DNA from: Mesaphorura yosii
Lineage: Eukaryota; Arthropoda; Collembola; Poduromorpha; Tullbergiidae
Reading direction: 5' to 3'
Length of the DNA stretch: 64,000 bases
Assembly (NCBI GenBank): GCA_009869945.1
Contig: WIXG01000154.1
Coordinates: 1-64,000 of the forward strand
The notes under the pieces were generated by a model. That model had not been told where the DNA came from. It made no database searches and saw nothing but the letters and a program-made list of their open reading frames with translations. Positions 40,839 to 47,018 of the stretch are shown here, one piece after another. The number at the start of each line of letters is the position of its first letter. The first letter of the stretch is position 1. A program made the position numbers and the translations under genes.

Positions 40839-41846
40839 TCATAGCTTACCAGACTTAGCTCGTTTACGTAGGTGTCTAATACTTCGAAACGAAACCTCAG
40901 GGTCGAGCACATACTTCACTTCGTATGCCCCAAGAGCTCCCAGTCGACCTAAAGTGGTTTGTGCCGCTTGTCTAAAATCTTCAATATTCTCAGGGGTAAG
41001 ATTCTTCACCAGGTTGTTGTACGGGTTTGCCGGGTCCAGAATCAGCGATCCCTGCTTCCAAGAAGCCGGAAGCTGATGTAAGTCGTAATTATGGGAGAAC
41101 ATAATTTGAGTTCTTCCAAGCTTCTGGATCGTGCGTAAGAATTCCCTAAACACGTAGTACATTCGGGCCTCGCCGCCCAATGCACATGTCTTGGCTGCAC
41201 TGACTGCAACTATTTCAATTAGAAAGCTCCTCCCTGAAATGTATCCCATCGGTGGAAGTTTCTTGTTCCAATATTTTGCTAGACGAACGACTGCGTGGGT
41301 GAAGCTATCTTGACTCTTCATGAAGTCCACGACTGACTCAGCGACGGCAGTACTGTTGAAATTCGCGACTTTTTCAGGATCGCTGGAAGTTGCCACAAAA
41401 CTGTAAAAATTATTACGTTGGTCCGTGCGTGCTGGAACCCCTTGGGGTAGGTTCACAGCAAAGTTGGTGGCCGGACAAATGTCGTACTCGAAACCGCCGT
41501 ACTTTATAGTAAGCATGAATTGATTTTGTCTTTTCAAGGCTACTTGCAGACGGGTCACTAAAGAGTCTTTAAACGTGTTCAGGACGTCATCCCATGGCGG
41601 CGATTTGTTACAAAACACCACCAAGTCGAAATCTGGCTGAAACTCATCCCCAAGCGCTGTTTTCTTTCCCATTGACCCTGAGATGCAGACGCGAGCAATG
41701 TAGTTTGTCCCACCCCTCAAAGCGTTGAAGATCTCGTTGGCACACTTTCTCCCCTGAGTTGCGTACTCCTCGGACGGAGTCAGTTCCGTCTCAGCAAAAT
41801 GGTGGAGAAGGCTGGCTTTCTGCTCCAAAGTGTGATGGCAAGCCAT
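40839..41846 (-). CDS. OAS: 2'-5' oligoadenylate synthase, intronless coding region
   Basis: 335 residues, one coding exon. The nucleotidyltransferase signature is G57-SMGKKTAL then FQPDFDLVVF with catalytic D72 and D74, and the third metal-binding acidic residue D122 in GGFEYDICPA. The OAS-specific C-terminal domain shows YWNKKLPPMGYISGRSFLIE and LILDPANPYNNLV, matching the DPAxPxNN block of OAS. All three aspartates are present, so it should be active. OAS proteins sense double-stranded RNA and make 2'-5'-linked oligoadenylate from ATP. A donor CTG|GTAAGA at about 41961 and an acceptor at 41856 suggest a 5' UTR intron, ten bases before the ATG. The upstream neighbour on the opposite strand is the HEPN/TPR gene, likewise intronless. 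cGAS was considered but its zinc-ribbon motif is absent. Confidence 0.92.
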   Translation of the reverse strand: MACHHTLEQKASLLHHFAETELTPSEEYATQGRKCANEIFNALRGGTNYIARVCISGSMGKKTALGDEFQPDFDLVVFCNKSPPWDDVLNTFKDSLVTRLQVALKRQNQFMLTIKYGGFEYDICPATNFAVNLPQGVPARTDQRNNFYSFVATSSDPEKVANFNSTAVAESVVDFMKSQDSFTHAVVRLAKYWNKKLPPMGYISGRSFLIEIVAVSAAKTCALGGEARMYYVFREFLRTIQKLGRTQIMFSHNYDLHQLPASWKQGSLILDPANPYNNLVKNLTPENIEDFRQAAQTTLGRLGALGAYEVKYVLDPEVSFRSIRHLRKRAKSGKL

Positions 41847-42827
41847 TTTGGTAATCTTGAGTAAAAAATCACTGTTGAAACTGATGACGTAACTTTAAAG
41901 AGCACTGGTGAATTTCCTCTCTTTCAAATCGAAAATGAAATTAATTTACAAAAATTCTTACCAGTGAATGTTTTTTCTTTCGTGTTATGCTTGGAATACA
42001 GCTGGAATTACCAATTCAATCAGAGCAAGTAAGTAAGGAAAACATGAAAGATGCTTTTGATAGTTGCGTCTGAAATTAAGCTGAGTTTAATATGAAGCGA
42101 TAAGTCGGTGGTTTCGATCGTTCTGTTTCGTCTATTATTTAGTGTTTTGCAGTCGACTGATAAGAGTTTCCTACAGATGTGAGGATGTAAATTTTAATGA
42201 CAAAATTGAAACTGAACTGATCAGCGTATTTTCTTCTGAGGATCGTCGGAGCGTTCCTTTTTATAATGCCGAGAGCGCAGAGAAGAGAATAAAATGTGAC
42301 GAAAACAAAGGCGTAACTCTTGCAAAAATGAGAGATTGTTCTCGAAGTACATTGACACTTCTGCTTCTGATAAGCATTTGCCCTGGTGCACATATTATGT
42401 ACCCATAATGCCATAATGTTGCACGTTAATCTCTTGTGCAATTGTTTTATGTTTGTGCTACGCAGTTTAAAACTTGTGTCAAGTGTGTGGGGTCGACAAT
42501 CATGAACGATAATCCCAAAATGCACAACATAAAACACGAACTCTCCGCTTTTCGAGAAGATTCACTTTTGTTCCATGAAATTTACCTCGCTGCATATTTG
42601 CAAAAGTCGAGACAACCAGTGGCAGCGAAATCCAATCCGCTGGATTTGCATTTAACTTTCAATCAAAACATGCCAGCTGATAAGGGTCCATCCTGTAACT
42701 GCACAGCGAGATCACGTCGATTACGTTTTTGACGTGTCCAGTAATTAATTTCGCACTGCCGCAAACATAAGCTTTCTGATCATTCTACATCTACATTTCA
42801 TACTAAATCTCGCATCAATAATTTAGG
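41847..42827. promoter_or_regulatory. shared divergent start region, OAS / HEPN-TPR gene
   Basis: 980 bp between two opposite start codons. Each side shows a likely 5' UTR intron boundary (41961/41856 for OAS; acceptor AATTTAG at 42826 for the large gene), so both intronless coding regions appear to be driven from spliced leaders. An AGTTTC...TTTC-rich sequence (41925-41985) has GAAA/TTTC doublets reminiscent of interferon-type elements, which is only a visual impression. Two short frames inside (42142-42408, 42499-42732) are not convincing genes. Confidence 0.45.
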
Positions 42828-45800: not shown

Positions 45801-47018
45801 CAGGCGATGCAGTTGCTACTTCAGCATAATATGATCCCACTTCTAATTACTTTGATGAATATATTTAACTCAGCAGCACTGGACGACGAAGCCAAGTCGC
45901 GAATCTTAAAACGCATGGTGGAGTCGGTCAATGAAGTCTGCTTTGAGTGGTACAAATCCGATCAGGATAAACCAGCAGTCATTGAGCATCGACGCTCAAT
46001 TCTCATACACGCGCTTAAGTTAGTGCATGACAGCCAAATTCTGGACTGCACCGATCCTGAAATTCTTTCTGCCCGTCGGACACTGGCAAAGTTCCACAAA
46101 CGGTTAGGTGATTACCACCAGGCCCTCGAACTCTGCATGCAGACTCATGACAGCCTATCACCGCTCTTTGCTAGGCGGCCTTCTGGACAGGATTTGGAAG
46201 ACAAGACCACGTTGAAGAAGTACGGAGCATATTTGCTCAATTTCAGCGACATCGCGTACGCTCACAATCTGCTGGAGAAGCATCACCAAGCTTTTAATTG
46301 GTACAGTGGGCTGTACTGCGAGTTGACTGGTGAGGAGGGCGAAATCAACTTTACCATCGAGAGGTACCAAAGTTTGGCCAATTCGGAAGTGTACCAGAAA
46401 CTAGGTAGCTTATCACAGAAATATCTGAGCGTGCTTCGCGTGGTGACGGATGCGATGTACGAGAAGAATAAGATTGTACTCAAGGCGGGGGACTTGCAGG
46501 AGCGCTTGAAAGCTCTGAAGAATTATTTGACGGTGTACGCCATCAGGGAATCGGAGCTCGGCGCGGAGCACGTCGACACAACGACCGCCCTCCGAGACGC
46601 GCAGTATACGGAGTACTTCATTGGGTACTTGTACAAGAAGTCACAGGATTTTGAGAGAGCACGGGAGTACTACGAGAGCTCATTGCAAAAATTAGCAAGC
46701 GGGAAGAAGATAACAGCTAGACGAATGGGAGAGTTTCATCCGGCTGTGCGGAAGGCGAATGAAATGGAATCTAAGACGAGACAGGGCCTTGCTTTGTGCC
46801 TCAACAGAATCGGGAAGTCGACAATGCTGAGGCAGCGAGGAGGTGGGCCTGCGGCTTTGCAATGCTTCCAGGCGGCACTAGATCACTATCAGCAGAGCTA
46901 CGAGATTCAGCTGCAAGAATTTGGGGAGGAGAATAAATTCACGAGATTAGTGATGAAGATGATCGAAGACACGCAGAAGCTGATCGCCAACTGCAGACAC
47001 AGGCATGAACAAATTTAG
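42828..47018 (+). CDS. giant intronless protein with two HEPN-like RNase motifs and C-terminal TPRs
   Basis: 1396 residues in one exon; I know no named orthologue. Region 1 (about 60-160) resembles a degenerate Ulp1/C48 peptidase: GKWTALVVVNC fits the strand with the catalytic His replaced by Lys76, and TTDSGIIALEMVRLI fits the QxDCG block with Ser131 for Cys. Region 2 (about 315-460) is helical and contains IRNKCLFHR, an R397-x5-H403 motif, followed by a long closing helix. Region 3 (about 495-625), after a Gly-rich loop (SGRGGGGR), contains ELRDLRNNIVHGV, a textbook RNxxxH motif at R562-H567. HEPN domains of this type cut RNA as dimers. Region 4 is an alpha-helical solenoid; region 5 (about 1063-1396) has TPR-like repeats (AKFHKRLGDYHQALELC, KKSQDFERAREYYESSLQKL). 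Likely an RNA-cleaving immune or stress factor; function not shown. Confidence 0.7.
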   Translation: MIIPFGVALAGQIQPDQLKDFVLINYDWFEDTSKVLFKIVEDVNLLDYEVTSSLELLYEGKQKKVLAYVFKMKSGKWTALVVVNCGSKLLGCTFGKEDDVHAIKVGVFNAAGVVDCHHFKYDTTSVSTTDSGIIALEMVRLICDECNEVHVFATEIEKALTTLKMPPKEETTVDKVIAKKGYEGVTTQDLKADDYNEKTLLLALGDQNWLPVVRKTLGSGRPIVLYIQSEPTFSGIPVEPYEEIKQSLRDKHISHHVFRVKRERLSRWDAFQAANILNDRLSKGKMPCVLGLDGKIKLSLSKRRQTLCDEFWETLRIKSEIIEKLKCCLSQITNRKSSPSFGLSDANLFVLFIEAVALQGLQISNKHRKKKIVENYLDKIGTNIIGVENWKVIKEIRNKCLFHRTFLQPLTPALIEGFITKDGQTVDNFFESTKNFLENTISNIEKLHSLAKYTDVRPESLDFNSPKIREWQAQDQKFDTEEAKSTLMDLFKSFMHRAYESEDGRQAQAFSLDEQLFQYTVNLIPLMANFFPEGCDESGASGRGGGGRDKLAHDLEELRDLRNNIVHGVFESPENRHRKLLSAICRLRVVFSKFYYSQELFKVFLKINDKNESWDSASHLLENTLNKLQLTFGREYCSSKEFLESERNFGYVVEEWVHLKVDDLLSYFEQHVDLILLLEYLQTQTAEFSFTADEKRELLEKCGKWLDKAKILGSDEKDALLDEINDPDIPELLRRQVVNRIRESESESAEPLLKYAAEGQQKRVQLHIRNTLLMIQQILRYYDVSNKELIRKFSNRFKSIRTGSDPVSERLRYIPVVAPLYVTTTQESDSAVPRTIAIELDLIVISLLEMCNDAFLRYKLEFTNITTIFQDESVLAYLVDEFLNHSAELDYIKQVLQHGPTFLYPLIVKLITSKCKFVDMERDSLLNIARQLFKNGSESNAKFLVELLNSKNEDLAKVVSADPDIRVSILETLCEELCRDRDQVKDSETHRQAMQLLLQHNMIPLLITLMNIFNSAALDDEAKSRILKRMVESVNEVCFEWYKSDQDKPAVIEHRRSILIHALKLVHDSQILDCTDPEILSARRTLAKFHKRLGDYHQALELCMQTHDSLSPLFARRPSGQDLEDKTTLKKYGAYLLNFSDIAYAHNLLEKHHQAFNWYSGLYCELTGEEGEINFTIERYQSLANSEVYQKLGSLSQKYLSVLRVVTDAMYEKNKIVLKAGDLQERLKALKNYLTVYAIRESELGAEHVDTTTALRDAQYTEYFIGYLYKKSQDFERAREYYESSLQKLASGKKITARRMGEFHPAVRKANEMESKTRQGLALCLNRIGKSTMLRQRGGGPAALQCFQAALDHYQQSYEIQLQEFGEENKFTRLVMKMIEDTQKLIANCRHRHEQI

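What the first reader, a model, noticed from the sequence alone, without database searches (positions are those of the whole stretch)
40839..47018. OAS divergently paired with a dual-HEPN/TPR giant protein: candidate undescribed 2-5A-type RNA-cleavage immune module
Seen: an OAS with all three catalytic Asp (D72, D74, D122) lies head-to-head, 980 bp from a 1396-residue protein with two HEPN signatures (R397-x5-H403; R562-x4-H567). Both coding regions lack introns yet show 5' UTR splice signals, unlike the intron-rich neighbours. Known: vertebrate OAS makes 2-5A that activates RNase L, whose nuclease domain has been placed in the HEPN superfamily; invertebrates with OAS are thought to lack RNase L. 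Inference: the neighbour may be the missing effector, sensing 2-5A through the N-terminal or helical regions and cutting RNA through the HEPN pair.
Basis: partly seen in the sequence, partly recalled or inferred. Interest (0 to 1): 0.9.

Follow-up and report, generated by a model that had tools for sequence, protein, structure and literature searches.

The report
OAS gene paired with possible RNA-cutter
In an unnamed, animal-like genome, a gene for an alarm-signal enzyme (OAS) sits back to back with a giant protein that may cut RNA, and the same two gene families sit together at a second, long-diverged site, so the giant is a testable candidate for the unknown partner of invertebrate OAS.

Summary
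The core observation holds: an OAS-family ORF (335 aa; D72, D74, D122 present) lies 981 bp head-to-head from a 1396-codon ORF with R397-x5-H403, R562-x4-H567 and C-terminal TPRs. New here: searched with the window giant, the genome shows one other giant (C883, 39% identical, open frame, all four R/H residues kept), and it too has OAS beside it: a broken copy in the same divergent position and an intact OAS 1.65 kb upstream. The flanking genes differ, so the pair, not the neighbourhood, was kept. HEPN support is weak: below-cut-off Pfam matches of the second region to two HEPN families (E 0.009, 0.007), window copy only; motif at the end of the third predicted helix, as in HEPN; models of low confidence. 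The first region has no profile support. No ankyrin-kinase-KEN RNase L was seen; two KEN loci exist, one IRE1-like by eye. The giant does not match RNase L or DZIP3-type HEPN. Best reading: an OAS-linked HEPN-TPR effector; activation by OAS and RNA cleavage are inference, and the OAS product is unknown. Another OAS lineage of this genome has a Death-like downstream exon and, at one locus, abuts an NB-ARC gene.

The parts
40839..41846 (-). OAS-superfamily nucleotidyltransferase, 335 aa, one open reading frame
   Evidence: Pfam SMODS 4.5e-6 and OAS1_C 3.4e-4, both just over cut-off; CBASS cyclase model NF041116 3.4e-17, below its cut-off (62.5 of 200 bits); profile of 4 OAS copies of this genome hits vertebrate OAS2 5.8e-22, OAS1 2.5e-16, bacterial CdnC 3.9e-11; window protein alone: CdnC 9e-8, OAS1 9.4e-6
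41625..41633 (-). catalytic D72-x-D74
   Evidence: invariant in the 4 aligned copies, lost by eye in the C62 and C12 copies
41481..41483 (-). third catalytic Asp, D122
41847..42827 (.). 981-bp intergenic region, candidate shared promoter (inference)
   Evidence: no convincing similarity to the C883 intergenic region (best blastn E 0.99)
42828..47018 (+). giant protein, 1396 aa, one open reading frame
   Evidence: second copy C883:11497-15498, 39% identical, open frame
42828..43727 (+). N-terminal region, residues 1-300, no Pfam match; fastest evolving (22-27% identity per 50-residue block in residues 51-300)
43845..44192 (+). candidate HEPN 1 (residues about 340-455) with R397-x5-H403
   Evidence: R and H kept in the second copy; helical in a low-confidence model; no family match
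44259..44627 (+). candidate HEPN 2 (residues about 478-600) with R562-N-x3-H567
   Evidence: PF18735 E 0.0088 and PF12358 (DUF3644) E 0.0069, both below cut-off; 60% identity to the second copy at residues 551-600; motif at the end of the third of four predicted long helices (low confidence)
46050..46997 (+). TPR region (residues about 1075-1390)
   Evidence: PF13424 1.8e-8, best stretch 1226-1287; TPR_10 at 1080-1106 below cut-off

Best explanation
The pair is an OAS-linked immune module. Shown: an OAS-family enzyme with intact catalytic residues and a giant TPR protein sit head-to-head, and OAS is linked to the giant at both giant loci found in the genome. Suggested: the giant carries two HEPN-like helical domains with conserved R...H pairs; in one chain they could form a composite metal-independent RNase site, as in Cas13 (recalled) or the KEN dimer of RNase L (recalled). 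Inferred: OAS senses foreign RNA, makes an adenylate messenger, and the messenger (or OAS itself) relieves the giant, whose N-terminal or TPR part is the sensor, so that it cuts RNA. It would work like OAS-RNase L or Cas10-Csm6 without being RNase L.
For: Second giant C883:11497-15498 with a broken OAS copy divergent from it and an intact OAS (one inferred 80-bp intron) 1.65 kb upstream; two giants in all found with the window protein. Besides OAS and giant, no ORF of 40 or more codons on C883 matches the 64-kb window at E 1e-3. Both giants under purifying selection: pS 0.82 (saturated) against pN 0.40, lowest pN in residues 641-960. R397, H403, R562, H567 invariant. PF18735 (RiboL-PSP-HEPN) and DUF3644, both named as HEPN families in passages of PMC3710099, match the second region below cut-off. 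Predicted helices 547-566 and 573-594 put R562/H567 at the end of helix 3, where PMC3710099 places the HEPN motif. PMC6307210 (passages) reports OAS but no RNaseL in four sponges and eight other lower Metazoa.
Against: HEPN matches are below cut-off and seen only in the window copy; the C883 fragments matched no HEPN family. Models have mean pLDDT 41 and 52; Foldseek has no match at E 0.001, and of the 50 VIA rows shown I recognise 3 as HEPN proteins, below designed bundles. A PDB profile search of HEPN 2 gave 5 rows (E 0.12-0.44), none a HEPN. The residue after the first R is Asn in the window copy but Ser in C883. The duplication may have carried the pair as one unit, so the linkage is fewer than two independent events; the divergent OAS at C883 is broken. 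No relatives in other species were found. No expression or biochemical data. PMC6307210 itself infers that ancient OASs were not interferon-induced immune genes (abstract and passages), against an immune role. Whether more giants exist is open: the search with the C883 copy did not complete.
Confidence: 0.38

Rival explanations
1. The two genes are functionally linked in immunity, but the giant is not a messenger-activated RNase: it is a scaffold or regulator (TPR solenoid with degenerate HEPN-like RNA-binding domains) that binds OAS or RNA directly.
For: TPR is the only domain over its cut-off; the most conserved stretches besides residues 551-600 are the helical parts 751-950 (59, 47, 60 and 64% per 50-residue block); HEPN domains can be non-catalytic RNA binders (abstract of PMC3710099).
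Against: All four R/H residues are kept at 39% overall identity, and residues 551-600 are among the best conserved (60%).
Confidence: 0.27
2. Adjacency without function: an OAS and an unrelated large gene became neighbours once; a segmental duplication copied the pair and nothing has separated them.
For: Only two giant loci found; the divergent OAS at C883 has decayed (4 stops in the match); the intergenic regions share no clear element.
Against: Linkage outlived divergence to 39% (giant) and 44% (OAS) identity while the flanking genes differ; an intact OAS still lies 1.65 kb from the second giant. Rough arithmetic of my own: 7 OAS contigs, allowing about 10 kb at each, in 93 Mb give about 1 in 1300 per giant for a chance neighbour (sizes).
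Confidence: 0.22
3. The OAS messenger acts on another protein; OAS genes here belong to mixed immune loci, and the giant is one of several unrelated immune genes gathered with them.
For: At C1025 an OAS with a Death-like downstream exon lies head-to-head with an NB-ARC ORF, next to a NACHT ORF with a below-cut-off lipase match.
Against: NB-ARC has 52 matches in the genome, so an OAS beside one is not very unlikely; the 20 NB-ARC loci fetched (short flanks, C1025 not among them) hold no OAS match.
Confidence: 0.13

Closest known systems
Vertebrate OAS-RNase L pathway
   Same: OAS-family synthetase with the catalytic Asp triad; proposed effector RNase of the HEPN superfamily (KEN is one, PMC3710099 abstract)
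   Different: The giant has no ankyrin, kinase or KEN match; two candidate HEPNs in one chain; TPR at the C terminus; genes adjacent
Type III CRISPR Cas10-Csm6/Csx1 (recalled; HEPN of Csm6/Csx1 in a table passage of PMC3710099)
   Same: Adenylate messenger proposed to switch on a HEPN RNase
   Different: No CARF match in the scans made; the product of this OAS is unknown; eukaryotic
Bacterial CBASS, clade C CD-NTases
   Same: OAS resembles the CBASS cyclase model NF041116 (E 3.4e-17, below its cut-off) and is adjacent to a putative effector gene
   Different: The giant has no PADLOC match; the profile of this genome's OAS copies is closer to vertebrate OAS than to CdnC in the PDB
Animal HEPN-TPR proteins of the DZIP3/hRUL138 type (PMC3710099, table passage)
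   Same: HEPN with TPR in an animal protein
   Different: HEPN_DZIP3 does not match the giant; the only match in the genome is elsewhere and below cut-off (C536)

Membership tests
OAS superfamily (CD-NTase) | G-S motif and three catalytic Asp | tested here: met
   G57-S58, D72, D74, D122
OAS superfamily (CD-NTase) | OAS1_C domain | tested here: met
   PF10421 20.7 bits against cut-off 19.9, narrowly; 21.6
OAS superfamily (CD-NTase) | synthesis of 2'-5' oligoadenylate on dsRNA | not testable with these tools
   needs enzyme assay
HEPN superfamily | Rx4-6H motif with polar residue after R | tested here: met
   R397-N, R562-N in the window copy; second copy keeps R and H, with S after R at the first site; the motif alone is common by chance
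HEPN superfamily | four-helix fold, motif at the end of helix 3 | tested here: inconclusive
   fitting helix order but mean pLDDT 41-52; fold searches not decisive
HEPN superfamily | profile match over cut-off | tested here: not met
   PF18735 16.4 of 28.4 bits, PF12358 16.4 of 27.6; so the giant is called HEPN-like, not a filed member
RNase L | KEN domain (PF06479) | tested here: not met
   giant not matched; KEN loci are C517 and C564
RNase L | ankyrin 2-5A sensor and kinase-like domain | tested here: not met
   no such Pfam match in the giant up to E 1
DZIP3-type HEPN | PF18738 match | tested here: not met
CBASS | CD-NTase beside a known CBASS effector | tested here: not met
   no PADLOC family for the giant at E 0.1

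The most novel reading that the evidence does not exclude
The giant is the unknown effector of an invertebrate OAS: a single-chain tandem-HEPN RNase with a TPR solenoid, switched on by an OAS-made oligonucleotide, inherited as a two-gene unit and unrelated in architecture to RNase L.
Probability: 0.25. Interest if true: 0.92.

Novelty: new variant of a known kind. Interest (0 to 1): 0.6.

Why it matters
PMC6307210 (passages) reports OAS but no RNaseL in four sponges and eight other lower Metazoa, and that sponge OAS is enzymatically active; what reads the product there is open. A protein physically linked to OAS at two long-diverged loci, with candidate RNase motifs, gives a specific protein to express and assay. 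If true, animals would have wired OAS to an RNA-cutting effector twice, with different architectures.

Tried and rejected
Relatives elsewhere: the giant, the OAS and the HEPN 2 alignment found nothing in the 5.8-billion protein collection (7177, 1650 and 3912 candidates shared words; E up to 0.001, 0.001 and 10), nor did the OAS alignment in the prokaryote genome collection (two peptide patterns, 95 pattern matches, none confirmed). These collections may hold few animals, so this says little about related species.

RNase L: PF06479 matched C517, read by eye as IRE1 (kinase and KEN), and C564, just over half a KEN domain beside RING-type exons; tblastn with kinase pieces of C517 gave no significant match in the 8.4 kb fetched (best E 0.037). 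Exon-wise searching could miss a divergent RNase L. The table passage of PMC3710099 mentions a solo RNase L in Oikopleura, so KEN proteins outside vertebrates are not unheard of. STING: no match, but no control rang, so uninformative. The 20 NB-ARC loci fetched show only weak TPR similarity to the second giant (4 rows, E 0.017-0.040).

Species: not identified; an 18S search did not complete twice. The gene content suggests an animal (PRDM2-like PR domain).

Print: searches listed no paper whose title or abstract start pairs OAS with a HEPN-TPR protein (one search found no paper; the others listed 20 of 21, 5 of 6, 20 of 35, 15 of 304, 4 of 5, 8 of 8 and 10 of 1206); most subscription papers are not held. 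I read passages of PMC8195603, PMC3710099, PMC6307210 and PMC10732462 only. PMC8195603 reports oligoadenylate synthase domains fused to TRADD-N, and separately HEPN fusions, in animals.
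Full report
What is there. The window is bases 1-64000 of contig C154 of an unnamed assembly of 93.0 Mb in 1127 contigs. An ORF of 335 codons at 40839-41846 (-) and one of 1396 codons at 42828-47018 (+) face away from each other across 981 bp. Flanking ORFs with a family match are a C2-domain ORF (39747-40583, +) and a PR-domain zinc-finger ORF (48016-48861, +).

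The small gene is an OAS-superfamily enzyme. SMODS and OAS1_C match just over cut-off, the CBASS cyclase model NF041116 at 3.4e-17 but below its equivalog cut-off, and a profile built from four OAS copies of this genome matches vertebrate OAS2 (5.8e-22) and OAS1 (2.5e-16) better than bacterial CdnC (3.9e-11); with the window protein alone CdnC (9e-8) ranked above OAS1 (9.4e-6). D72, D74 and D122 are present and invariant in the four aligned copies. The product cannot be told from sequence: PMC10732462 (passages) places OAS inside bacterial clade C, characterised members of which make cyclic triadenylate.

The giant is a TPR protein with two candidate HEPN domains. The TPR match is over cut-off in both copies. 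For the second HEPN, PF18735 and DUF3644 match at E 0.0088 and 0.0069 when residues 300-640 are scanned alone, both far below their cut-offs, and PF18735 only at 0.11 with the full protein. PMC3710099 lists both as HEPN families and puts the Rx4-6H motif at the end of helix 3, with a polar residue after R and a poorly conserved insert between helices 2 and 3 (passages). The single-sequence model of residues 465-621 (pLDDT 52) has long helices at 480-500, 512-530, 547-566 and 573-594 (and short ones at either end), so R562 and H567 fall at the end of the third, and a Gly-rich insert absent from the second copy lies just before it. This agrees with HEPN but does not prove it: fold searches are dominated by generic bundles, a PDB profile search found no HEPN, and the second copy matches no HEPN family. 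For the first HEPN only the conserved R and H and helicity speak.

The motif by itself is weak evidence. The window giant has 11 overlapping Rx4-6H matches and the second copy 8; 3 pairs are conserved, against a mean of 0.64 in 5000 column shuffles (2.4% reach 3), one of them in the TPR region.

The key new result is the second locus. With the window giant as query, the genome shows one other giant, at C883:11497-15498 (+), 39% identical over the full length, without a stop. The reverse search with that copy was asked ten times and never answered. The same 17.4-kb contig holds an intact OAS at 8776-9848 (+, ORF limits), 44% identical to the window OAS, with one inferred 80-bp intron, and between them, head-to-head with the giant, a decayed OAS copy at about 10381-10821 (-) with four stops in the match. 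Thus the layout OAS(-) / giant(+) occurs twice, once with that OAS broken. Apart from OAS and giant, no ORF of 40 codons or more of C883 matches the window at E 1e-3. The giants are under purifying selection (pS 0.82, saturated; pN 0.40), strongest in residues 641-960 and loosest in 1-310. A variable N terminus with a conserved core fits a recognition part joined to a working part, but this is inference.

Other OAS copies. Seven contigs hold OAS matches: C154, C883, C617, C1025, C1071, C62, C12. C62 and C12 lack the DxD by eye. C1025 and C1071 have downstream exons with below-cut-off Death matches (E 0.022, 0.012), joinable in frame through AAG|GTAAGT and AAG|GTACCA donors and a shared TTTTTGCAG acceptor, in my judgement the best of many open combinations that the script listed. 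At C1025 this OAS is head-to-head with an NB-ARC ORF (5149-7995, -; PF00931 1.6e-9) beside a NACHT ORF (80-4372, -; 4.1e-6). So OAS genes sit next to immune-type genes at three of the seven contigs if the giant is counted; in the stretches read of C617, C1071, C62 and C12 tblastn at E 1 showed no giant (C617 has an unread gap), and I did not scan all their neighbours.

RNase L. Two KEN loci were found; neither shows the ankyrin-kinase-KEN order in the DNA read. This agrees with PMC6307210 (passages), which found OAS but no RNaseL in four sponges and eight other lower Metazoa; but exon-wise search cannot prove absence, and the same paper infers that ancient OASs were not interferon-induced immune genes, which speaks against an immune module.

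How it would work. Shown: linkage, catalytic residues of OAS, conserved R/H residues, TPRs. Suggested: HEPN 2. Inferred: RNA sensing by OAS, an adenylate messenger, activation of the giant, RNA cleavage. Overall I put 0.38 on the effector reading broadly, 0.25 on its strict form (oligonucleotide-activated tandem-HEPN RNase), and 0.22 on mere adjacency.

Verdict. It stays a candidate: the HEPN assignment is below threshold and no relative outside this genome was found.

Noticed in passing
L019:4438-6161 and L020:3059-5659 (contigs C1025 and C1071): OAS genes with downstream exons that look like Death domains (Pfam Death E 0.022 and 0.012, below cut-off), joinable in frame by good splice sites: a probable OAS-Death fusion.
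   Followed up: partly
L023:80-4372 and L019:1-2496 (contig C1025): A NACHT ORF with a below-cut-off lipase match and an NB-ARC ORF lie beside the OAS-Death gene, the NB-ARC one head-to-head with it: a small immune cluster.
   Followed up: partly
whole genome, e.g. L037-L056: The NB-ARC family has 52 matches over cut-off (some may be exons of one gene) in this 93-Mb genome, an apparent expansion.
   Followed up: no
L035:2457-2750 (contig C564): Just over half of a KEN (RNase L/IRE1 nuclease) domain, 50 bits, downstream of RING-type exons on the same strand and without a detectable kinase; fusion, fragment or second IRE1.
   Followed up: partly
L021:4502-5518 and L022:4398-5819 (contigs C62, C12): OAS-like ORFs that by eye have lost the catalytic DxD, probable pseudo-enzymes.
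   Followed up: no
window 6786-8147 (-): A 453-codon APH-type phosphotransferase ORF (PF01636 1.3e-21), which by eye looks fungal or bacterial: possible horizontal transfer, untested.
   Followed up: no
window 16316-19680 (-): Two similar oxidoreductase-like ORFs in tandem (by eye), probably a local duplication.
   Followed up: no
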